This document shows, one piece after another, positions 4,534 to 16,567 of a DNA stretch of 16,567 nt; the first letter of the stretch is position 1, and each line of letters opens with the position of its first letter. Both the position numbers and the translations under genes were made by a program. The stretch lies in NCBI RefSeq assembly GCF_000497445.1, contig NZ_CM002285.1, positions 1,249,830 through 1,266,396 of the forward strand, given 5' to 3'. A model generated the notes under the pieces. The model had not been told where the DNA came from. It searched no databases and saw only the letters and a program-made list of their open reading frames with translations. Origin of the DNA: Streptomyces roseochromogenus subsp. oscitans DS 12.976 (GTDB lineage Bacteria > Actinomycetota > Actinomycetes > Streptomycetales > Streptomycetaceae).

Positions 4534-6066
4534 ATGTCCCCCAACCCCGATCCCTCGCCCGCCCCGGGCCTGCCCCAGCAGGACGAGGAGCGGCGGCTGC
4601 GCGAACTCGGCTACCGGCCGGTGCTGGCCCGCCGCATGGGCGGCTTCGGCAATTTCGCGATCAGCTTCTCGGTGATCTCGATCCTGTCCGGCTGCATGAC
4701 CCTGTACGGCTTCGGCCTGAACACCGGCGGCCCGGCCGTGATGCTGTGGGGCTGGGCGGGCGTCGGCCTGTTCGTGCTGTGCGTCGGCCTGGCGCTCGCC
4801 GAGGTCACCAGTGCCTATCCGACGTCCGGCGCGCTGTACTACATGGCCGACCGGCTCGGCGGCCGGCGCTGGGGCTGGTACACCGGCTGGCTGAATCTGC
4901 TCGGTCTGCTCGGCGCGATCGCCGGCATCGACTACGGCGCGGCACTGTTCACCGGCGCCTTCGCGAACCTGCGGTGGGGCTTCACCCCGACGCCCGGCAG
5001 GACCATGCTGATCTTCTGCGCCATCCTCCTGCTGCACGCGGTGCTGAACCTGTTCGGCGTCCGCCTGGTCAGCCTGCTCAACTCGGTCAGCGTGTGGTGG
5101 CACCTGGCGGGCGTCGCGCTCATCGTCGGCGCGCTCGCGATCGTCCCCGGCCACCACCAGTCGGCGTCCTTCGTGTTCACGAAGTTCGTCAACGAGACCG
5201 GCTGGCACAACCCGGTCTACGTGGCGGCCATCGGCCTGCTCCTCGCGCAGTACACCTTCTCCGGCTACGACGCCTCCGCCCACCTCTCCGAGGAGACCTC
5301 GCAGGCCTCGGTGTTCGCGGCGCGCGGCATCGTACGGTCCATCTGGGCGTCCTGGGTCGCCGGCTTCGTCCTGCTCGCCGGACTGACCTTCGCCATCCAG
5401 GACTACGACGCCACGCGCAACACCGCCACGGGTGTGCCGCCCGCGCAGATCCTGCTCGACGGCCTCGGCACGGACGGCGCGAGCGCGCTGCTCCTGGTGG
5501 TGATCATCGCCCAGCTGTTCTGCGGCAACGCCGAGGTCGCCGCGGCCAGCCGGATGGTGTTCGCGTTCAGCCGGGACGGCGCGCTGCCCGGCTCGCACCT
5601 GTGGCGCAAGGTGAGCAGCCGCACCCAGACCCCGGTCGCCGCCGTCTGGCTGGCCGTCGTCGTGGCGGGCGTCCTCGCCCTGCCGTCCCTGTACTCGGCG
5701 ACGGCGTACAACGCGGTGACCGCCATCAACGTCATCGGCATCACCCCCGCCTACGCCATCCCGGTGCTGCTGCGGCTGCGCGCGGGCGACCGTTTCCAGC
5801 CGGGGCCGTGGCATCTGGGCCGCTGGAGCAGGCCGATCGGCTGGATCGCGGTGATCTGGGTGGTCTGTGTGACCGTGCTGTTCTGTCTGCCGCAGGCCTC
5901 GCCGGTCACCGTCGACTCGATGAACTACGCCTCGGTGGCCCTCGCCGTCGTCCTGGCCCTCGCGAGCGTCTGGTGGTACGTCGCCCGCCGCGCGTACGGC
6001 ACCCCCACCGCCGCCGCGTACGGCAGCGACCGCGACCAGGCCGAACTCGCGGAGGGCATCATCTGA
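4534..6066 (+). CDS. APC-family amino acid permease
   Basis: This 510-residue integral membrane protein belongs to the amino acid-polyamine-organocation superfamily and is closest in style to the GABA/choline permease group. After a hydrophilic N-terminus the first core helix carries RMGGFGNFAISFSVISILSG (about 31-50). EVTSAYPTSGALYYMADRLG follows (about 90-109), a hallmark of this group, then about ten further hydrophobic segments, including one with YTFSGYDASAHLSEET (about 243-258) that matches the usual substrate-site helix region. It should import an amino acid or amine using an ion gradient; the substrate cannot be read from the sequence. The ATG at 4534 has GGAGG eight bases upstream. 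Three 10-bp repeats lie between it and the preceding gene. A hairpin at 6133-6165 separates it from the channel gene. Confidence 0.93.
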   Translation: MSPNPDPSPAPGLPQQDEERRLRELGYRPVLARRMGGFGNFAISFSVISILSGCMTLYGFGLNTGGPAVMLWGWAGVGLFVLCVGLALAEVTSAYPTSGALYYMADRLGGRRWGWYTGWLNLLGLLGAIAGIDYGAALFTGAFANLRWGFTPTPGRTMLIFCAILLLHAVLNLFGVRLVSLLNSVSVWWHLAGVALIVGALAIVPGHHQSASFVFTKFVNETGWHNPVYVAAIGLLLAQYTFSGYDASAHLSEETSQASVFAARGIVRSIWASWVAGFVLLAGLTFAIQDYDATRNTATGVPPAQILLDGLGTDGASALLLVVIIAQLFCGNAEVAAASRMVFAFSRDGALPGSHLWRKVSSRTQTPVAAVWLAVVVAGVLALPSLYSATAYNAVTAINVIGITPAYAIPVLLRLRAGDRFQPGPWHLGRWSRPIGWIAVIWVVCVTVLFCLPQASPVTVDSMNYASVALAVVLALASVWWYVARRAYGTPTAAAYGSDRDQAELAEGII

Positions 6067-8365: not shown

Positions 8366-10585
8366 GTGACTGACTCGACCATCATCTACACCTACACAGA
8401 CGAGGCGCCGGCCCTGGCGACGCATTCGTTCCTGCCGGTGATCCAGGCGTACGCCTCGCAGGCCGGTGTCCCCGTGACGACCCGGGACATCTCGCTGGCC
8501 GGACGCATCATCGCCCACTTCCCCGAGTACCTGAACGAGGACCAGCGCATCCCGGACGCGCTGGCCGAGCTGGGTGACCTGGCCAAGACTCCCGAGGCCA
8601 ACATCGTCAAGCTGCCGAACATCTCGGCGTCCATCCCGCAGCTGCGCGCCGCCGTCGCCGAGCTGCAGGGCAAGGGCTACGCCCTGCCGGACTACCCGGA
8701 CGACCCGAAGACCGACGAGGAGCGCGAGATCCGCGCCCGCTACGACAAGGTCAAGGGCTCCGCGGTCAACCCGGTGCTGCGTGAGGGCAACTCCGACCGC
8801 CGTGCCCCGGCGTCGGTGAAGAACTACGCCAAGACCCACCCGCACCGCATGGGCGCCTGGACCCCCGAGTCCAAGACCAATGTGGCGACGATGGGCGAGA
8901 ACGACTTCGCCTCCACCGAGAAGTCCGTGGTGATCGCCGAGGACACCACCCTCCGCTTCGAGCTGGTCGGCGCGGACGGCTCCACCACCGAGCTGCGCGC
9001 GCCCCTGCCCGTCATCGCCGGCGAGGTTGTCGACGCCGCCGTGCTGCGCGTCGCCGCGCTGCGCGATTTCCTCGCCGCGCAGGTCGCCCGCGCCAAGCAG
9101 GAGGGCGTCCTGTTCTCCGTGCACCTGAAGGCCACGATGATGAAGGTCTCCGACCCGATCATCTTCGGTCACGTGGTGCGCGCCTTCTTCCCGAAGACGT
9201 TCGCGCAGTACGGCGAGACCCTCAAGGCGGCCGGCCTCACCCCGAACGACGGCCTCGGCGGCATCCTCAAGGGCCTGGAGAACCTGCCCGAGGGCGCCGA
9301 GATCAAGGCCTCCTTCGACGCCGGGCTGGCCGAGGGCCCGGCTCTCGCCATGGTCGACTCCGACAAGGGCATCACCAACCTGCACGTGCCGTCCGACGTG
9401 ATCGTGGACGCCTCCATGCCCGCGATGATCCGCACCTCCGGCCACATGTGGGGCCCCGACGGCCAGGAGGCCGACACCCTCGCGGTCCTGCCGGACCACA
9501 GCTACTCCGGCGTCTACCAGGCCGTCATCGAGGACTGCCGCGCGAACGGCGCCTTCGACCCGGCCACCATGGGCTCCGTGCCGAACGTCGGCTTGATGGC
9601 ACAGAAGGCCGAGGAGTACGGCTCCCACGACAAGACCTTCGAGATCCCGGCCGCCGGCACGGTCCGCCTGGTCGACGCCGCCGGCACTGTCGTGCTGGAG
9701 CAGGCCGTCGCCGAGGGCGACATCTTCCGCGCCTGCCAGACCAAGGACGCCCCGATCCGCGACTGGGTCAAGCTGGCCGTCACCCGCGCCCGCGCCACCG
9801 GCGACCCGGCGGTGTTCTGGCTGGACGAGAACCGCGGCCACGACGCGGTGCTGATCGAGAAGGTCAAGGCGTACCTGCCGGAGCACGACACCGAGGGCCT
9901 GGACATCCGCGTCCTGTCTCCGGTCGAGGCCACCAAGCTGTCGGTGGAGCGCATCCGCCGCGGCGAGAACACCATCTCGGTCACCGGCAACGTCCTGCGT
10001 GACTACCTGACCGACCTGTTCCCGATCCTGGAGCTGGGCACCAGCGCCAAGATGCTGTCGGTCGTCCCGCTGATGGCGGGCGGCGGCCTGTTCGAGACGG
10101 GCGCCGGCGGCTCCGCGCCCAAGCACGTCCAGCAGCTGGTCAAGGAGAACTACCTGCGCTGGGACTCCCTCGGCGAGTTCTTCGCCCTGGTGCCGTCCTT
10201 CGAGCAGTACGCCGAGGCCACCGGCAACGCCGGCGCCAAGGTCCTCGCCGGCACCCTCGACCGCGCCACGGCGACCTTCCTCAACGAGGACAAGTCCCCG
10301 ACCCGCCGCATCGGCGGCATCGACAACCGCGGCAGCCACTTCTATCTGTCCCTGTACTGGGCGCAGGAGCTGGCCAAGCAGACCGACGACGCCGACCTGG
10401 CCAAGGCCTTCGCGCCGCTCGCCGAGACCCTCGCCGCGAACGAGCAGAAGATCGTGGACGAGCTGCTCGCGGTCCAGGGCTCCCCGGCGGACATCGGCGG
10501 CTACTACCAGGTCGACAAGGCCAAGGCGGACGCGGTCATGCGCCCGTCGGCCACCTGGAACGAGGCTCTGGCGTCCCTGAGCTGA
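8366..10585 (+). CDS. icd: Monomeric NADP-dependent isocitrate dehydrogenase
   Basis: This 739-residue enzyme oxidatively decarboxylates isocitrate to 2-oxoglutarate with NADP+ in the TCA cycle, in the cytoplasm. Its length and sequence fit the monomeric (IDH-II) family throughout: [20 protein letters not shown] at the N-terminus, [19 protein letters not shown] (83-101), [18 protein letters not shown] (131-148) and [16 protein letters not shown] near the C-terminus. Ser132, Asn135, Arg139 and Arg145 fall at the positions I recall as isocitrate-binding in Azotobacter vinelandii IDH. S. coelicolor idh (SCO7000, from memory) is the expected orthologue. The GTG start has GGAG (8356-8359) six bases upstream. 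A palindromic operator lies in front and a strong terminator behind, so it is transcribed alone. No truncation or frameshift is seen. Confidence 0.97.
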
Positions 10586-10615
10586 TGCCTGTGACGCTTC
10601 CGCCGTCGCACTGAA

Positions 10616-10651
10616 CTCCGCCCCGGCCGGTGACTTCCGGCCGGGGCGGAG
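10616..10651 (+). terminator. Strong terminator after isocitrate dehydrogenase
   Basis: CTCCGCCCCGGCCGG (10616-10630) and CCGGCCGGGGCGGAG (10637-10651) form a perfect 15-bp stem around TGACTT, 30 bases after the stop codon. There is no T-tract, as is usual in this group. Confidence 0.9.
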
Positions 10652-10757
10652 CCGTCTGCGGCGCAAGGGGAGCGGCTGTGCGGGAGTTGAACAGCTGACG
10701 CGCATGAGGCTCCCGATGTGGCACCTTGCCCCCTGACCCCGACCCCTTGGAGCAGCC

Positions 10758-11552
10758 GTGGCCACCCCGCCCGTCCCCTCGTACACACTCCTCCCCGGTG
10801 CCCCCGAGTCGCCCGTGCTGCTGCATGTGCCGCATTCGGCGCGGGGGATCCCGGCGGAGGCGCGCCGGGGGATCGTGCTGGACGACGGTGCGCTGGAGCG
10901 GGAGCTGGACCACATCACGGACGCGCACACCGCCGAGCTGGCCGAGCGGGCCGCTGCCTTGGCCGCCGTCCGGCCCTGGCGGTTCGTGAACCGGCTGTCC
11001 CGGCTGGTCGTGGACCCGGAGCGGTTCCCGGACGAGCGGGAGGAGATGACGGCAGTCGGCATGGGCGCCGTGTACACGCGGACCACGCACCGGGCCGAGC
11101 TGCGGCCCGCGGACGCCGATCCGGAACCGCTGCTGGCCCGGTACTTCCGACCGTACGCGCGGGCCATGGCCGAGGCGGTCGCGGACCGGCTGGCCGCGAC
11201 CGGACGGGCCGTGGTGATCGACGTGCACTCCTATCCGAGCGAGCCGCTCCCCTACGAGCTGCACGGCGACGGACTGCGGCCCCCGGTGTGCCTGGGCACG
11301 GACGCCTTCCACACCCCGCCGGAGCTGGCCGAGGCGGCCCGCACGGCGTTCGCGGTCTTCGGGGAGACGGGACTGGACAGCCCCTTCGCCGGTACGTACG
11401 TACCGCTGGAGTTCCACGGCACCGACGCCCGGGTCGGTGCGCTGATGGTGGAGATACGGAGGGACGTCTATATGGCCGAGCCGGGCGGACCGGCAGGGCC
11501 GGGCCTGGACCGCCTGGCCACAGCGCTGGCCGCACTCGTCGACACAGCCTGA
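10758..11552 (+). CDS. N-formylglutamate amidohydrolase family protein
   Basis: This 264-residue cytoplasmic hydrolase belongs to the FGase (HutG-like deformylase) family. Motifs in order are LLHVPHSARGIP (21-32, with His23 and His26), DHITDAHTAEL (51-61), NRLSRLVVDPERFP (78-91) and VVIDVHSYPSEPLP (152-165, with Asp155 and His157), which together suggest a metal-dependent amidohydrolase site. Family members remove formate from N-formyl-L-glutamate, the last step of one histidine degradation route. No other histidine-utilisation gene is nearby, so the substrate here is unproven. The GTG at 10758 has GGAG (10749-10752) five bases upstream. The gene lies between the terminator of isocitrate dehydrogenase and a downstream palindromic repeat, so it appears monocistronic. 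No convincing promoter is seen in 10652-10757. Confidence 0.88.
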   Translation: MATPPVPSYTLLPGAPESPVLLHVPHSARGIPAEARRGIVLDDGALERELDHITDAHTAELAERAAALAAVRPWRFVNRLSRLVVDPERFPDEREEMTAVGMGAVYTRTTHRAELRPADADPEPLLARYFRPYARAMAEAVADRLAATGRAVVIDVHSYPSEPLPYELHGDGLRPPVCLGTDAFHTPPELAEAARTAFAVFGETGLDSPFAGTYVPLEFHGTDARVGALMVEIRRDVYMAEPGGPAGPGLDRLATALAALVDTA

Positions 11553-11640
11553 GCGCCCCGAAGGGGCGCGGGGCTGTGTCTGATACGCGGCTACCGCCGC
11601 GTGGGCGCGATCGACCACAACGACGCCGCAGACGCCCGAC
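11551..11640. repeat. Streptomyces-type palindromic intergenic repeat, includes terminator hairpin
   Basis: The stop codon of the preceding gene runs into GCGCCCC (11553-11559), GAA, GGGGCGC (11563-11569). A second hairpin follows: ACGCGGC (11585-11591) and GCCGCGT (11596-11602) around TACC. The sequence between and after these (GCGGGGCTGTGTCTGATACG, then GGGCGCGATCGACCACAACG) resembles a repeat I recall downstream of many genes in Streptomyces genomes. The first hairpin probably terminates the upstream gene. Whether the whole block is a mobile or REP-like unit needs a genome-wide count. Confidence 0.65.
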
Positions 11641-11730
11641 GACACTTCACGGCACCCCATGAGGCGCCCCGGCCCCCACCTGGAGCACTCCCACAGGACA
11701 GCCGCCGCTCCCCATACCAGTGTGGTGTCC

Positions 11731-12954
11731 ATGACCGAGGAGACCACGCTCACCGGGCAGGCCCCGCCGCCCGTACGGGACTGGAGCACACCCGACCTGG
11801 ACGGGACCGACTTCGACCCGGTCCTCGCCGACCTGATGCGCGAGGGTCCGCTGACCCGGATCCGGCTGCCGTTCGGCGAGGGCTGGGCGTGGCTGGCGAC
11901 CCGCTACGACGACGTGAAGCTGATCACCAACGATCCGCGCTTCGGCCGTACCGAGGTGACGCACCGTCAGGTGACCCGGATGGCGCCGAACTTCGCGCCC
12001 CGTCCGGGCTCGCTCGCCTGGGCCGACCAGCCCGACCACAACCGGCTGCGCAAGCCGGTCGCCGGTGCCTTCACGGTGAGCGCGATGAAGCGGCTGCGGC
12101 CCCGCGCGCAGGCCGTCCTGGACGAGCTGGTGGAGGGTGTCGTACAGGACGGGCCGCCGGCCGACCTGATCGAGCGGGTGCTGGAGCCGTTCCCGCTCAC
12201 CGTGGTCAGTGAGGTGATGGGCGTGCCCGCCGCCGACCGGGGGCAGGTGCACGCCTGGACCCGGGAGATCATCTCCACCAACGGCGTCGAGGCGGCCGGC
12301 CGGGCCAAGGACGGCCTGTACGGGTGGATCACCGCGACCGTCCGGGCCCGTGCCGCGAGCCCGGGCGAGGACGTCTACTCGATGCTCGGCGGGGCCGTGG
12401 CGCGCGGCGAGATCAGCGAGGCGGAGGCCGTCGGGCTGGCCGGCCCGCTGCAGATCGGCGGCGAGGCCGTGACGCACAACTGCGGGCAGATGCTGTATCT
12501 GATGCTGACGCGGCCGGAGTTGATGGAGCGGATGCGGGCGCGTCCCGAGGCGCGCGGCCCGGTGCTGGACGAGCTGTTCCGGTGGATCCCGCACCGCAGC
12601 TCCGTCGGGCTGGCCCGGATCGCGCTGGAGGACGTGGAGATCGCCGGCCACCGGATCGCCGCGGGCGAGCCGGTCTACGTCTCCTACCTCGCCGCCAACC
12701 GCGACCCGGCCGTCTTCCCGGACCCGGACCGCATCGACCCCGACCGCGATCCGAACCCGCACGTGGCGTTCGGCAACGGCCCGCACTTCTGCACCGGCAC
12801 CGTGCTGGCCCGGCTGCAGACCGAGCTGCTGGTCGACACGCTGCTGGACCGGCTGCCCGGGCTGCGGCTCGCGGTACCGGCCGAGCAGGTGCGGTGGCGG
12901 CACCGGACGATGATCCGCGGCCCGCAGACGCTGCCCGTGACCTGGTCCGCCTGA
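11731..12954 (+). CDS. Cytochrome P450 with atypical I-helix
   Basis: This 407-residue soluble bacterial P450 has the heme-thiolate signature FGNGPHFCTG (347-356) with Cys354 as the iron ligand, the K-helix ExxR motif (Glu281-Arg284, ELFR), and a C-helix region DHNRLRKPVAGAFT (102-115). The I-helix reads LQIGGEAVTHN (240-250). The acidic Glu245 is kept, but the usual Thr-Thr/Ser pair is Ala246-Val247 with a Thr one position later, so oxygen activation may differ. It would be a mono-oxygenase or coupling enzyme for an unknown substrate. No ferredoxin or reductase gene is next to it, so electron partners must be elsewhere. The ATG at 11731 gives a normal length but has only a weak GTGGTG upstream. 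In-frame GTGs at 11722 and 11725 and an ATG at 11659 are alternatives. It converges on the sigma-factor cassette. Confidence 0.92.
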   Translation: MTEETTLTGQAPPPVRDWSTPDLDGTDFDPVLADLMREGPLTRIRLPFGEGWAWLATRYDDVKLITNDPRFGRTEVTHRQVTRMAPNFAPRPGSLAWADQPDHNRLRKPVAGAFTVSAMKRLRPRAQAVLDELVEGVVQDGPPADLIERVLEPFPLTVVSEVMGVPAADRGQVHAWTREIISTNGVEAAGRAKDGLYGWITATVRARAASPGEDVYSMLGGAVARGEISEAEAVGLAGPLQIGGEAVTHNCGQMLYLMLTRPELMERMRARPEARGPVLDELFRWIPHRSSVGLARIALEDVEIAGHRIAAGEPVYVSYLAANRDPAVFPDPDRIDPDRDPNPHVAFGNGPHFCTGTVLARLQTELLVDTLLDRLPGLRLAVPAEQVRWRHRTMIRGPQTLPVTWSA

Positions 12955-12965
12955 CCGGCTACCGG

Positions 12966-12983
12966 CCCGGTCGCCTGACCGGG
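12966..12983. terminator. Bidirectional hairpin between convergent genes
   Basis: CCCGGTC (12966-12972) pairs with GACCGGG (12977-12983) around GCCT. It sits in the 30-bp gap between the P450 stop and the stop of the small minus-strand gene, so it can end transcripts from both sides. Confidence 0.6.
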
Positions 12984-12984
12984 T

Positions 12985-13467
12985 TCAGGTCCGCAGCCAC
13001 TCGGTGACGATCACCTCCGCGCCGGTCCGCAGCCTGAGCGCGAACGGACCGGCCGGCGTGGTGTCACTGGTGAAGCGCCCGAGAGTGTCGACCGCGACCG
13101 GGCGGACGGTCTGCGGTCCGCCGAGCACCTCGATACGCGCCGACCGCGGCGGCAGCACCTGCCCGATCAGCCCGTCCTCGGTGACCTCGACGTCCACGGT
13201 GACCTCGCCCGCGCGGAACGTCAGCATCCGCGGTGCGTCCGTGACCCCGCGCACCGGCAGCGCGTCCACGAGCGAGTCGAAGGTCAGCTCGGCGATCTTC
13301 GCGTCCAGGTCGTGCAAGGCGTAGGCGTCCAGGGCCAGTTGGCGCAGGACATCCGGCACCGGGTCCAGGACCGCGGCGGCCTGGCGCAGCTCCTCCTCCA
13401 GCAGTCCGTCCGCCTCCTCGTCGTCCGCCGGGCCCTCCTCGGGCACTTCGTCGTCGTAACCGCTCAT
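12985..13467 (-). CDS. Sigma-factor-linked hypothetical protein, acidic N-terminus and beta-sandwich-like C-terminus
   Basis: The product has 160 residues. An acidic start (DDEVPEEGPADDEEADGLLE, 5-24) leads to a predicted helical part with DALHDLDAKIAELTFDSL-like sequence: AYALHDLDAKIAELTFDSL at about 48-66. The C-terminal half is beta-rich; VAVDTLGRFTSDTTPAGPFA near residues 124-143 resembles the D-x-x-GRF...P-x-G pattern of carboxypeptidase-regulatory (transthyretin-like) domains. I recall proteins of this type beside ECF sigma factors and CHAT-domain proteins in actinomycetes, but know no assigned function. Its ATG overlaps the sigma-factor stop (ATGA, 13467-13464), so the two are translationally coupled. 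It could modulate the sigma factor. It has no membrane helix and no zinc-binding anti-sigma motif, so a classical anti-sigma role is not supported. Confidence 0.82.
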   Translation of the reverse strand: MSGYDDEVPEEGPADDEEADGLLEEELRQAAAVLDPVPDVLRQLALDAYALHDLDAKIAELTFDSLVDALPVRGVTDAPRMLTFRAGEVTVDVEVTEDGLIGQVLPPRSARIEVLGGPQTVRPVAVDTLGRFTSDTTPAGPFALRLRTGAEVIVTEWLRT

Positions 13468-14039
13468 GCCGCACCTCGTGCGTTCATCCGGGCCCGCAGC
13501 CGGCGCAGACAGCGCTGCCGCAGGGGTCCGATACTGCCGACCGCGATACCGAGCGCGGCCGAGACCTCCACATAGCTGGGCGGCGGGGAGGCCACCAGCA
13601 CGCGCAGCAACTGCCGGCAGCGCTCCCCCAGTCCGTCCAGCTCCTGCCACAGGCGGCGTAACCGCTCGGCCCGGTCCGCCGCCTCCTCCGAAGCGATCAG
13701 CGACTCCTCCGGGGTCTGCTCCTCGCTGGCCCGGTCCAGCACGCGCGGGTCGTCCGTCAGCGTCAGCCGGGCCACCGCCTTGAGCACCTTCAGACACTCG
13801 TTGCGGGCCGTGCTGGCCAGCCACGCACCGGCCTTGTCGGGCTCGCGGATACGGCCCAGGTGCTGGGCGAAGCGGAACCACACGGTCTGGTAGACCTCGT
13901 GCCCGTCGGCGTCGGAGAGCCGGTGCGCGCGCACCACCGACCACACCAGCGGACTCATCCCCTCCACCAGCGCCTTCCAGGCCGCGGCGTCTCCGTCGAC
14001 GGCGGACTGGACCAGCGCGCCGACCTCTGTGCGGTCCAC
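13464..14039 (-). CDS. ECF-type sigma-70 family RNA polymerase sigma factor
   Basis: This 191-residue protein has the two-domain layout of ECF sigma factors. Region 2 (about 20-90) includes MSPLVWSVVRAHRLSDADG, EVYQTVWFRFAQHL and GAWLASTARNECLKVLK. An acidic linker follows (EEQTPEESLIASEEAADRAE). Region 4 (about 130-185) includes LGERCRQLLRVLVASPPPSY and VEVSAALGIAVGSIGPLRQR, the helix-turn-helix. It would direct RNA polymerase to a small set of promoters. The GTG at 14039 is favoured because AAGGG lies about seven bases upstream. An ATG at 14102 (MRSGTLRSTAYDD) overlaps the protease stop as ATGA and would add 21 residues without a binding site; either is possible. It sits between a cytoplasmic protease and a coupled small protein, with no membrane anti-sigma gene beside it. 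Confidence 0.9.
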   Translation of the reverse strand: MDRTEVGALVQSAVDGDAAAWKALVEGMSPLVWSVVRAHRLSDADGHEVYQTVWFRFAQHLGRIREPDKAGAWLASTARNECLKVLKAVARLTLTDDPRVLDRASEEQTPEESLIASEEAADRAERLRRLWQELDGLGERCRQLLRVLVASPPPSYVEVSAALGIAVGSIGPLRQRCLRRLRARMNARGAA

Positions 14040-14098
14040 GGCTCCACCCTTCGTGTACGGCACGTCATCGTACGCCGTGGAGCGGAGCGTCCCGGACC

Positions 14099-15529
14099 TC
14101 ATACGGGCACGGCCGGGTCGACGACCGGCGCCGGGCGCCAGGTGGGCGGCCGGAGCACCGTGACGCGTGCCCCGCGCACCTCGGCGCGGTGCGTGGCCGA
14201 CGCCAGCAGCCGGTCGCGGGCGGCGCGCGGGTCGCGCTCCTGGTACGCCGTCATCCGCGCGGCGACGAGCCCCGCGACGACCGGTGTGGCGAAGGAGGTG
14301 CCGCTCCACTGCGCGAGCCCGTCGAACATCACCTGGTGCGGCTTGGCGCCGGTGCTCTCCCGGCCCTCGCTCAACGCGCCGGTGTGGCGCGGGAACTGGC
14401 AGGTGCAGGAGTAGTCGAAGCCGAACCGGCAGGCGTCGTAGGTGGAGTGCTGGTAGACGTACGGCACGGGCGCGGCGAAGCCGGTGAGGGCGCTGGTGAG
14501 ACGCTCGCCCGGGGCGAAGACCCGCACCCAGGGGCCGTGGTTGCTGAAGCAGGCCTCGCTCTCGCCGTCCGCACTCAGCGCGCCGACCGACACCACGCTG
14601 TCCTCGTACTCGGGCAGGCCGGCGTAGGCGGCGGGCCAGAACCGCGCGTTGCTGGAGTTGTTGCCGGCGGCGGCCACCAGCAGGGTGCGCCGCTCGCGCA
14701 GTGCCCGCATGAACGCCTCCAGGCCGATGAGCCCGTCGGCGCCCTCGGTGGTGGTGCCGGCCGAGAGGCTGATGATGTCGGGCCAGCCGTCCTCGTCGAC
14801 CGCCTCGAAGAGCCGGGCGCCGAACTCGGACTCCAGGATCGCGCCCGCGTCGTTCATGGTGTTGCGGACGGTCACGTTGGTATTGGGTGCGACGGCCGCG
14901 AGGATCCCGGCGATGAACGTGCCGTGCCCGGAGTACTGGCGCAGCACCCCGTCGGCGTCGGTCTCGGCCGGCTGGGTGTCGCCCGTGGTGTGGGCGAGCA
15001 GCGGGTAGTCGCGGTGGTCGTGCACCAGGCCGGTGTCGAGCACGAGGACCCGGGCGGCGCTGTCCGCGTCGTAACGGCCCTCGGCAGCGGCCGGGTTGGG
15101 CGGCTGGGTGCGCGGCACGGGCACCGGCTCGTCGCTCGGGCAGGCGTTGACCGCGATGTGCACGACGTGGTTACGGCCGACCAGGCGGCGGCCCTGGCGG
15201 TCCTCGGCCTCCCGCAGGGCGCGCAGGGCGTGCGGGACGGTGTCGGTGCCCTCGGTGGGGTCGCCGATCCGGATGCGGGTCACTCCGGTGCGGTTGGTGT
15301 GCGGGCCGTCCCGGCGCACATGGTCGGGGACGAGTCCCTCCGTCGCGGTGAAGTGGGCGCGCACGGTGTCCTCGACGACCCGGGCCTCCTCGCCGTCCCG
15401 GGCGAGCACCACGCCCTTCTCGTACAGGAAGTGCGCGGTGTCGTCGTCGTACGGGCCCAGCGCCAGGGCGACATCGGGCATCGCCCGCTGGATGTGATCG
15501 AACTGCTCGTGGAAACGCTGTGGTGCCAT
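14099..15529 (-). CDS. Cytoplasmic S8 (subtilisin-like) serine peptidase
   Basis: The product has 476 residues. The catalytic triad is complete: Asp165 in RVLVLDTGLV, His202 in YSGHGTFIAGI and Ser412 in WSGTSFATPVVAGLVA; Asn290 (VAAAGNNSS) supplies the oxyanion hole. Residues 1-150 form an N-terminal region without a signal peptide or membrane segment, including AHFLYEKGVVLARDGEEARV, which resembles fervidolysin-type propeptides. The enzyme should therefore act in the cytoplasm and may be autoinhibited. An insertion before the catalytic Ser holds Cys367, Cys375 and Cys377. The ATG at 15529 has GGAGGAGAC just upstream. It is the first gene of a three-gene minus-strand operon with the sigma factor and the small protein, and is divergent from a TPR protein. 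This suggests a proteolytic signalling role rather than nutrient digestion. Confidence 0.92.
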   Translation of the reverse strand: MAPQRFHEQFDHIQRAMPDVALALGPYDDDTAHFLYEKGVVLARDGEEARVVEDTVRAHFTATEGLVPDHVRRDGPHTNRTGVTRIRIGDPTEGTDTVPHALRALREAEDRQGRRLVGRNHVVHIAVNACPSDEPVPVPRTQPPNPAAAEGRYDADSAARVLVLDTGLVHDHRDYPLLAHTTGDTQPAETDADGVLRQYSGHGTFIAGILAAVAPNTNVTVRNTMNDAGAILESEFGARLFEAVDEDGWPDIISLSAGTTTEGADGLIGLEAFMRALRERRTLLVAAAGNNSSNARFWPAAYAGLPEYEDSVVSVGALSADGESEACFSNHGPWVRVFAPGERLTSALTGFAAPVPYVYQHSTYDACRFGFDYSCTCQFPRHTGALSEGRESTGAKPHQVMFDGLAQWSGTSFATPVVAGLVAARMTAYQERDPRAARDRLLASATHRAEVRGARVTVLRPPTWRPAPVVDPAVPV

Positions 15530-15548
15530 GGTGTCTCCTCCCCCGACA

Positions 15549-15587
15549 AGACGGTGTTCGACAGTGAGAGCCGTGGGGCCACCGTCT
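15549..15587. promoter_or_regulatory. Inverted repeat in the divergent protease/TPR control region
   Basis: AGACGGTG (15549-15556) and CACCGTCT (15580-15587) form a perfect 8-bp inverted repeat with centres 31 bp apart, about three helical turns. It fills most of the 77-bp gap between the two divergent start codons and could control both transcripts. CTGATAC/GTATCAG at its right edge may be a -10 for either strand. Confidence 0.5.
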
Positions 15588-15606
15588 GATACAGCAGGCC
15601 ACTACC

Positions 15607-16567
15607 ATGCGAGACGTGACAGCGGAAGGCGAGTCGGTTCTCGAACTGCTGCCCTTGGTGTTCGCCGACCCCGGCGAGGCCCGGGCGCGCGCGGAACAGG
15701 TGCTGCGGGCCGGTCCGCAGCCGCTGCCCGCCAGCGTCGCCCACCAGGTACTGGGCATCTGGCAGCGGGACTTCGGCGATCTGCGGATCGCGTTACGGCA
15801 TCTGCGCCGCGCCCGGGACCTGGCCGCGCGCGCCGAGTCGGCCGACCGCGAGGCGGATGTGCTCGCGACGCTGGGGGTCGCACTGGTGCACGCGGGGCGC
15901 ACGCGGCAGGGGCTCACGTCCTTCGAGCGGGGTGTCGCGCGCGGTACCGGACACACCCGGGCCCGGGTGCTGTACCGGCGGGCGTACGTGTGGTGGGTGC
16001 TGGGCCGGCACCGGGAGGCGCTGGAGGACGTACGGCGGGCACTGCCCGTGCTGAGGCAGGTCGGGGACGACATCTGGACCGCGCGGGCGCTGACCCTGCG
16101 GGCCACCGTCCATCTGGCGCTCGGCGCGGTGGACCGGGCGGTCGCGGACTTCACGGCGGCGGAGCGGCTGTGGGACACGACGGGGCAGGAGCACGACAAG
16201 GCGGACGCGGTGGAGAGCCGGGGCCTCGCCGCGTTCCGGTCCGGGGACATCCCGGCGGCGCTGCGGCTGCTGGACGAGGCCGAGGAGCGGTACGCGAAAC
16301 TCGGCACGCCCACCTACATGCTGTCCATCCGGCGCTGCGAGGTGCTGATGGCGGCCGGGCTGGCCCCGGAGGCGCTCGCCGAGGCGGACGCGACGATCGC
16401 GCTGCTGGACCGGATCGGCGGGCAGTCGACCCGCAAGGCCGAGCTGCTGCTGGCGGCCGCGCGGGCCGCCCGCTCGGCCGGGGACGCGCACACCGCGATA
16501 GCCCGCGCCGCCGTCGCCGTACGGCTGTTCGCCGCACAGCGGCGGACGTGGTGGGAGACGCACGCCC
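15607..16567 (+). CDS. TPR-repeat protein, partial (continues past right edge)
   Basis: The frame is open from ATG 15607 to the end of the window (320 codons) with no stop. It consists almost wholly of tetratricopeptide-like helix pairs of about 40 residues, for example ALRHLRRARDLAARAESADR, ATLGVALVHAGRTRQGLTSF, RRAYVWWVLGRHREALEDVR and LRATVHLALGAVDRAVADF, followed by at least two more units. There is no signal peptide. Proteins of this layout in Streptomyces often carry a C-terminal CHAT (caspase-like) protease domain, and that is my expectation for the unseen part, but no catalytic residue is visible here. A GTG at 15616 is an alternative start; the ATG has only a modest GCAGG upstream. 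It is divergent from the S8 protease/sigma operon and shares its control region. Confidence 0.85.
   Translation, partial: MRDVTAEGESVLELLPLVFADPGEARARAEQVLRAGPQPLPASVAHQVLGIWQRDFGDLRIALRHLRRARDLAARAESADREADVLATLGVALVHAGRTRQGLTSFERGVARGTGHTRARVLYRRAYVWWVLGRHREALEDVRRALPVLRQVGDDIWTARALTLRATVHLALGAVDRAVADFTAAERLWDTTGQEHDKADAVESRGLAAFRSGDIPAALRLLDEAEERYAKLGTPTYMLSIRRCEVLMAAGLAPEALAEADATIALLDRIGGQSTRKAELLLAAARAARSAGDAHTAIARAAVAVRLFAAQRRTWWETHA

What the first reader, a model, noticed from the sequence alone, without database searches (positions are those of the whole stretch)
12985..16567. Protease, sigma factor, small protein and TPR cassette: a possible proteolysis-linked signalling system
The sequence shows an intracellular S8 protease with an intact triad, an ECF sigma factor, and a small acidic/beta-rich protein joined by overlapping stops and starts. 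They are divergent from a TPR protein across a shared 77-bp region. ECF factors are usually held by membrane or zinc anti-sigma proteins; none is here. TPR-CHAT proteins, subtilases and ECF factors occur together in bacterial conflict and signalling systems. Inference: the TPR(-CHAT?) protein senses a partner, the protease cuts an inhibitor or itself, and the sigma factor then switches genes on.
Basis: partly seen in the sequence, partly recalled or inferred. Interest (0 to 1): 0.75.

Follow-up and report, generated by a model that had tools for sequence, protein, structure and literature searches.

The report
Caspase-linked sigma factor control module
Four neighbouring genes in a Streptomyces chromosome (a caspase-like protease, a subtilisin-like protease, a gene-switching sigma factor and a small non-enzyme protein) are kept together by evolution across actinobacteria, so they probably form one proteolysis-controlled gene switch, of a kind already proposed in print but, as far as I found, not yet tested.

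Summary
An S8 protease, an ECF sigma factor (SIG) and a 160-aa acidic protein (SML) overlap by ATGA at both junctions and are divergent across 77 bp from a TPR gene. That gene continues past the window, through two N-runs, into a CHAT domain with His and Cys motifs. The linkage is not chance: outside Streptomyces SIG is present in 66 of 69 SML loci, and SML and TPR-CHAT co-occur in 92 of the 99 genomes holding either, among 296. Split cassettes mostly keep both halves in one genome. The kind is not new: a review names group ECF54 for this context (carboxypeptidase, subtilase, CHAT) and proposes proteolytic control without an anti-sigma factor. Added here: the 'carboxypeptidase' is probably SML, a helical-hairpin plus Ig-like protein with no protease signature; SIG, SML and CHAT are the near-constant core; S8 is dispensable. 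Most likely, untested mechanism: TPR-CHAT senses a cue and cuts SML (or SIG-SML), releasing SIG, with the logic of Craspase/CASP-sigma. Against it: three loci keep SML next to S8 with no SIG beside it.

The parts
12985..13467 (-). SML: 160-aa acidic small protein; two predicted N-terminal helices and an Ig-like / CarboxypepD_reg-like beta sandwich
   Evidence: Family alignment; 41 of 83 members match PF13620 at E <= 0.1, best 9.1e-6; AlphaFold2 mean pLDDT 89.1
13464..14102 (-). SIG: ECF sigma factor, 212 aa; start overlaps the S8 stop, stop overlaps the SML start (ATGA both times)
   Evidence: PF04542, TIGR02937; overlaps read
14099..15529 (-). S8 subtilisin-like protease, 476 aa, triad Asp165/His202/Ser412
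   Evidence: PF00082 E 1.4e-22; alignment
15530..15606 (.). 77-bp divergent intergenic region with conserved blocks (CTGTATCA, GCATGGTAGTGG in S8 sense)
   Evidence: 58 Streptomyces-type sequences
15607..16567 (+). TPR-CHAT caspase-like protease gene, 5' part (TPR repeats); continues beyond the window into a CHAT domain at G000:C1:1267640-1268137
   Evidence: TPR_12 E 6.3e-17 and CHAT E 1.3e-24; intact relative L049

Best explanation
This is a Streptomyces copy of the ECF54-type module, a cytoplasmic sigma factor controlled by proteolysis. SHOWN: the four genes are a conserved set; SIG, SML and TPR-CHAT are the near-constant core; the catalytic residues of both proteases are conserved. INFERRED: SIG and SML are made together by coupled translation and form a complex in which SML holds SIG back; the TPR part of TPR-CHAT senses a partner or ligand; the activated CHAT cysteine protease cuts SML (or SIG in complex with SML); freed SIG switches on target genes. 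S8 is an auxiliary step (processing TPR-CHAT, or clearing fragments), as some lineages lack it. It works like Craspase (Csx29-Csx30-CASP-sigma) but is not a member of it.
For: SIG directly precedes SML on the same strand in 169 of 169 loci that have both, 66 of 66 outside Streptomyces; 4-nt overlap in 135 of 169 and 33 of 66. Among 296 genomes of the class: 92 have SML and TPR-CHAT, 197 neither, 3 only CHAT, 4 only SML; in the window's genus 11 both, 17 neither, none mixed. A relaxed second look, given to the 7 mixed genomes only, found the partner in 4, so 96 of 99. In 20 genomes whose SIG-SML place has no CHAT gene, a strong TPR-CHAT lies elsewhere (20 of 20, E <= 2.7e-142), with an S8 of the same type divergent from it in 18. 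CHAT His and Cys present in 134 of 143 loci, the other 9 being truncated or N-interrupted ORFs. Distances of SIG correlate with those of SML (Spearman 0.64) and TPR-CHAT (0.61) more than with S8 (0.23) in 45 loci, 35 with S8 (not corrected for kinship). A TPR-CHAT protease that cuts a sigma inhibitor is established for Csx29 (PMC10028731, passages). ECF54 literature proposes proteolytic control.
Against: No interaction, cleavage or regulon evidence. In 3 of 69 non-Streptomyces loci SML sits beside S8 with no SIG next to it (L136, L162, L196), and in one of these genomes, G151, SIG lies alone on another contig, so SML is not tied to SIG alone. SML matches no known anti-sigma structure among the rows seen. 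Opposite charge of SIG and SML holds for Streptomyces but not in general: 10 of 13 SIG have pI 6.2 or less. No conserved cleavage site in SML was recognised. The published proposal assumes no anti-sigma factor.
Confidence: 0.42

Rival explanations
1. The published ECF54 reading: there is no anti-sigma factor; the proteases keep the system off by degrading the sigma factor itself until a signal stops them. SML would be an adaptor that presents SIG to the protease.
For: Stated in PMC8999054 section 3.3. SIG-SML coupling fits an adaptor as well as an inhibitor.
Against: AntA/ClpXP, the one case that review calls shown experimentally, uses a general protease, whereas here a dedicated TPR-CHAT enzyme is co-inherited; CHAT relatives with known targets cut at specific sites (Csx29).
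Confidence: 0.25
2. SML serves the proteases, not the sigma factor: it is an inhibitor, chaperone or substrate of S8 or TPR-CHAT, and SIG merely transcribes the genes that respond.
For: SML directly follows S8 without SIG in L136, L162 and L196; SML and TPR-CHAT co-occur almost perfectly.
Against: In 66 of 69 non-Streptomyces loci SML directly follows SIG, also where S8 and CHAT lie elsewhere; SML distances correlate poorly with S8 distances (Spearman 0.16, 35 loci).
Confidence: 0.2
3. A conflict or suicide system: TPR-CHAT and S8 are executioners in phage defence or cell death, and SIG regulates them.
For: CHAT and subtilase domains occur in such systems (recalled). PADLOC 'subtilase' model matches S8 at E 7.4e-13; IetS at 1.1e-4 over short stretches.
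Against: Neighbours in the scanned split loci are ordinary genes; SIG, SML and TPR-CHAT match no PADLOC model at E 0.001; no CRISPR-like repeats within 6 kb of window or 12.7 kb downstream.
Confidence: 0.08

Closest known systems
ECF54 sigma factor group (Huang 2015, Casas-Pastor 2021, as cited in PMC8999054)
   Same: ECF factor of actinobacteria with carboxypeptidase (-like), subtilase and CHAT proteins in its context and no classical anti-sigma factor.
   Different: The literature lists 'carboxypeptidase' as one of the proteolytic enzymes; here that part looks like a non-enzymatic regulatory-like domain protein. I could not read the two primary papers, so this difference is an inference.
Craspase / CASP: Csx29 (TPR-CHAT), Csx30, CASP-sigma (PMC10028731)
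   Same: TPR-CHAT protease, a sigma inhibitor and an ECF-like sigma factor; protease frees the sigma factor (passages).
   Different: No CRISPR-like repeats seen here; SML is 160 aa against 565 for Csx30; no RNA guide partner known; extra S8 protease.
CalpL-CalpT-CalpS (type III CRISPR)
   Same: Protease that cuts an anti-sigma protein to release a sigma factor (parts and roles recalled; abstracts in the listing mention CalpL, SAVED and a transcriptional response).
   Different: Lon-type protease with a SAVED sensor, cyclic oligoadenylate signal, CRISPR-bound.
AntA (ECF282) degraded by ClpXP
   Same: Actinobacterial ECF factor controlled by proteolysis.
   Different: General protease acting on a C-terminal tag of the sigma factor; no dedicated protease or small partner.

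Membership tests
ECF54 | Subtilase and CHAT protein in the gene context | tested here: met
   Window and relatives; context definition
ECF54 | Carboxypeptidase (-like) protein in the gene context | tested here: met
   SML family matches CarboxypepD_reg PF13620 in 41 of 83 members at E <= 0.1; the window's own SML does not match by itself; that this is the protein meant in the papers is inferred
ECF54 | No classical (membrane or zinc) anti-sigma factor beside it | tested here: met
   SML has no Cys and no hydrophobic segment; window neighbours are P450 and FGase
ECF54 | Match of SIG to the published ECF54 HMM or to SFT86700.1 | not testable with these tools
   HMM and primary papers not held; a homologue search of a related SIG listed no Geodermatophilus in its best 120 of 4460
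ECF sigma factor | Regions 2 and 4, no region 3, about 200 aa | tested here: met
   Region 2 by PF04542; TIGR02937 (sigma70-ECF) over residues 28-192 of 199. Region 4 gave no Pfam hit of its own
TPR-CHAT protease | TPR repeats plus CHAT domain with His/Cys dyad | tested here: met
   in this strain the gene is interrupted by two N-runs
Craspase (type III-E CRISPR) | Cas7-11 (gRAMP) effector and CRISPR array | tested here: inconclusive
   No repeats in window 10500-16567 or L005 3300-16001; the rest of the genome was not searched for Cas7-11
Craspase (type III-E CRISPR) | Csx30 homologue | not tested
   No comparison with Csx30 was run; only the lengths differ (160 against 565 aa)
Type VII secretion mycosin (S8) | NCBIfam TIGR03921 at its cut-off | tested here: not met
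   81.8 bits against a cut-off of 278.75
Known anti-sigma folds | Structural match of SML to a solved anti-sigma domain | tested here: inconclusive

The most novel reading that the evidence does not exclude
A phylum-wide, CRISPR-independent caspase-type switch: TPR-CHAT, on sensing an internal cue, makes a site-specific cut in a small Ig-like anti-sigma protein of a new kind and so releases a cytoplasmic ECF sigma factor. Craspase with its CASP-sigma would then be a CRISPR-captured or convergent version of an older caspase-to-sigma logic.
Probability: 0.3. Interest if true: 0.75.

Novelty: new member of a known kind. Interest (0 to 1): 0.48.

Why it matters
ECF54 was proposed to be controlled by proteolysis with no anti-sigma factor; my searches turned up no experimental test of it, in a library that lacks most subscription papers. 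Near-perfect co-inheritance of a non-enzymatic small protein with a caspase-like protease, beside the sigma factor and even where the genes are unlinked, names a candidate target and makes the question testable with a few gene deletions and one cleavage assay. If right, caspase-type proteolysis would control transcription in bacteria widely, outside CRISPR.

Tried and rejected
Promoter footprinting: conserved blocks in the divergent region of 58 Streptomyces-type sequences (of 81 tried), but by eye no ECF-type motif shared between SIG-SML promoters and S8/CHAT divergent regions in lineages where they are split; the consensus scan found no sigma-70-type promoter and no terminator. Autoregulation is neither shown nor excluded.

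Natural SIG-SML fusions, which would have allowed an interface model: 4 ORFs carried two labels; their sequences look like frameshift or N-run artefacts. None accepted.

Opposite charge of SIG and SML as a binding argument: true in Streptomyces, not general.

Structure matches of SML: generic Ig-like sandwiches; no anti-sigma structure among the 50 rows shown. Sequence search of solved structures gave only two weak hits (E 0.0028 and 0.085).

S8 as mycosin, PatA or IetS: below cut-off or partial.

Name-based proof of ECF54: the named hits included Motilibacter and Vallicoccus, no Geodermatophilus in the 120 rows shown.

Weak points of my counts: 69 of the 70 non-Streptomyces places were fetched (G118 was missed). 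L169-L188 partly repeat genomes among L049-L128, so the 172-locus totals are redundant; the 69-locus set and the 296-genome table are the fair counts. The relaxed second look was given only to the 7 mixed genomes, not to the 197 without either protein. Fisher's p is not corrected for kinship. Several loci without S8 or CHAT end at a contig end. The first alignment (A1) had wrong strands and was dropped.

Full report
WHAT IS THERE. The window lies at C1:1249830-1266396 of a 9.78-Mb genome; the closest named relatives are Streptomyces. On the minus strand S8 (14099-15529), SIG (13464-14102) and SML (12985-13467) follow each other with ATGA overlaps at both junctions. The TPR gene starts 77 bp away on the plus strand and leaves the window. 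A run of 300 N begins at the base after the window, a second of 300 N lies further on, and one of 716 N ends just before the window, so the window looks like a stretch between gaps or masks.

THE MISSING HALF. Beyond the N-runs, L005:5200-6147 holds a CHAT domain (E 1.3e-24) with His and Cys motifs. It is in another frame than the TPR part; that may be a wrong gap length or a real break, and I cannot tell. In L049 (Streptomyces sp. IMTB 2501, SML 99% identical) the gene is one 870-aa ORF with TPR repeats and CHAT at residues 628-868.

CONSERVATION OF THE CASSETTE. I scanned 172 loci around SML genes with HMMs built from them: SML 172 (by construction), SIG 169, TPR-CHAT 143, S8 138. These are redundant and mostly Streptomyces. 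The fairer set is the 69 loci outside Streptomyces (69 of the 70 such places found in 296 genomes of the class): SIG in 66, TPR-CHAT in 43, S8 in 36. Where both exist, SIG precedes SML on the same strand, 66 of 66 and 169 of 169 overall, with a 4-nt overlap in 33 and 135. The order of the other genes varies.

SPLIT MODULES. I searched 28 genomes that lack CHAT or S8 beside SIG-SML. Twenty of them (17 of family f19 plus G087, G126, G307) have no CHAT gene there; flanks that I scanned in this group hold ordinary genes (an acetyltransferase/CoA-ligase protein, DUF5998, a thymidine kinase, ferrochelatase). All 20 have a strong TPR-CHAT elsewhere (E <= 2.7e-142). In 18 an S8 of the same type is divergent from it; in G307 it is adjacent on the same strand; in G148 the two are on separate contigs. 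The other 8, of family f17, have CHAT beside SIG-SML and no strong S8 of this type anywhere (3 with no hit at 1e-10, 5 with best E from 3.9e-12 to 7.0e-21). Genome G151 has SML, S8 and TPR-CHAT on one contig and the family SIG alone on another (E 7.3e-76 against 3.7e-18 for its next sigma). In L162 and L196 too SML follows S8 with no SIG beside it. The module breaks at different joints, yet its parts mostly stay in the genome: good evidence of joint function in trans.

CO-OCCURRENCE. Among 296 genomes of the class, 92 have SML (E <= 1e-6) and TPR-CHAT (E <= 1e-60), 197 neither, 3 only TPR-CHAT, 4 only SML (Fisher p 1.9e-67, not corrected for kinship). In the window's own genus the sample shows 11 with both, 17 with neither, none mixed. 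A relaxed look at the 7 mixed genomes found the partner in 4; G142 (470 contigs), G311 (75% complete) and G144 stay mixed: 96 of 99. In a phylum sample SML is found in 36 of 296 genomes, 28 of them outside the class, 11 of these 28 only weakly (E 4e-7 to 5e-12). Of two outside loci looked at, one has SIG beside SML and one shows none within its short flanks.

WHICH PARTNERS EVOLVE TOGETHER. In 45 loci, pairwise distances correlate best for SIG-SML (Spearman 0.64), SIG-CHAT (0.61) and SML-CHAT (0.54), less for CHAT-S8 (0.48), and poorly for SIG-S8 (0.23) and SML-S8 (0.16; 35 loci with S8). This is not corrected for species kinship, and S8 is more diverged, so it is supporting evidence only.

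THE PROTEASES. S8 catalytic residues are invariant in 12 of 12 aligned members. In 134 of 143 TPR-CHAT loci His and Cys are both in place; the other 9 are ORFs cut by a contig or locus end or by N-runs (judged from lengths and positions), the window's own among them.

WHAT IS KNOWN. PMC8999054 (section 3.3 read whole; [quoted passage not shown] A search for 'ECF54' returned three papers, two of them unrelated by title. The nearest worked-out model is Csx29-Csx30-CASP-sigma (PMC10028731, passages), in which a TPR-CHAT protease cuts a sigma inhibitor. The likeness is one of logic: no CRISPR-like repeats were found here, and homology of SML to Csx30 was not tested.

MECHANISM. Shown: a conserved module, conserved catalytic residues, overlapping genes, coupled inheritance. 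Inferred: SML restrains SIG and CHAT releases it; S8 is optional and hence accessory. In several f19 genomes the SIG-SML start follows a TATACT-like box at close spacing (by eye), as expected if SIG is made constantly and controlled after translation. The three SML loci without an adjacent SIG, and the lack of any interaction data, keep my confidence below one half; a reading in which SML serves the proteases remains alive.

VERDICT. The kind of system is already in print as ECF54. What is added is the likely identity and near-constancy of the small protein, the core set, the co-inheritance in trans, and a sharp test.

Noticed in passing
after window 16567; L005:4398-4697 and 5261-5560; L006:9115-9830: The window is bounded on both sides by N-runs (716 before, 300 after), and a second 300-N run lies in the TPR-CHAT gene, whose frame differs across it.
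   Followed up: partly
G117, G192, G250, G182, G099: Two S8 genes of this type lie in tandem on one strand beside TPR-CHAT in five f19 genomes.
   Followed up: no
L137:7267-8694 (-): The S8 of this distant relative has what looks by eye like a twin-arginine signal peptide, unlike the window's S8; it would be exported.
   Followed up: no
window about 14400-14440 (S8 insert): The Streptomyces-type S8 has an insert with a C-x(n)-C-x-C pattern, also in L129 and L131 but not in the other aligned rows; possibly a metal or redox site.
   Followed up: no
L204, L210, L167 (family f17): A DUF3145 gene (PF11343) lies next to the SIG-SML-CHAT module in all three loci checked.
   Followed up: no
L082, L098, L096, L124: Apparent SIG-SML or S8-SIG fusion ORFs that look like frameshift or N-run artefacts.
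   Followed up: yes
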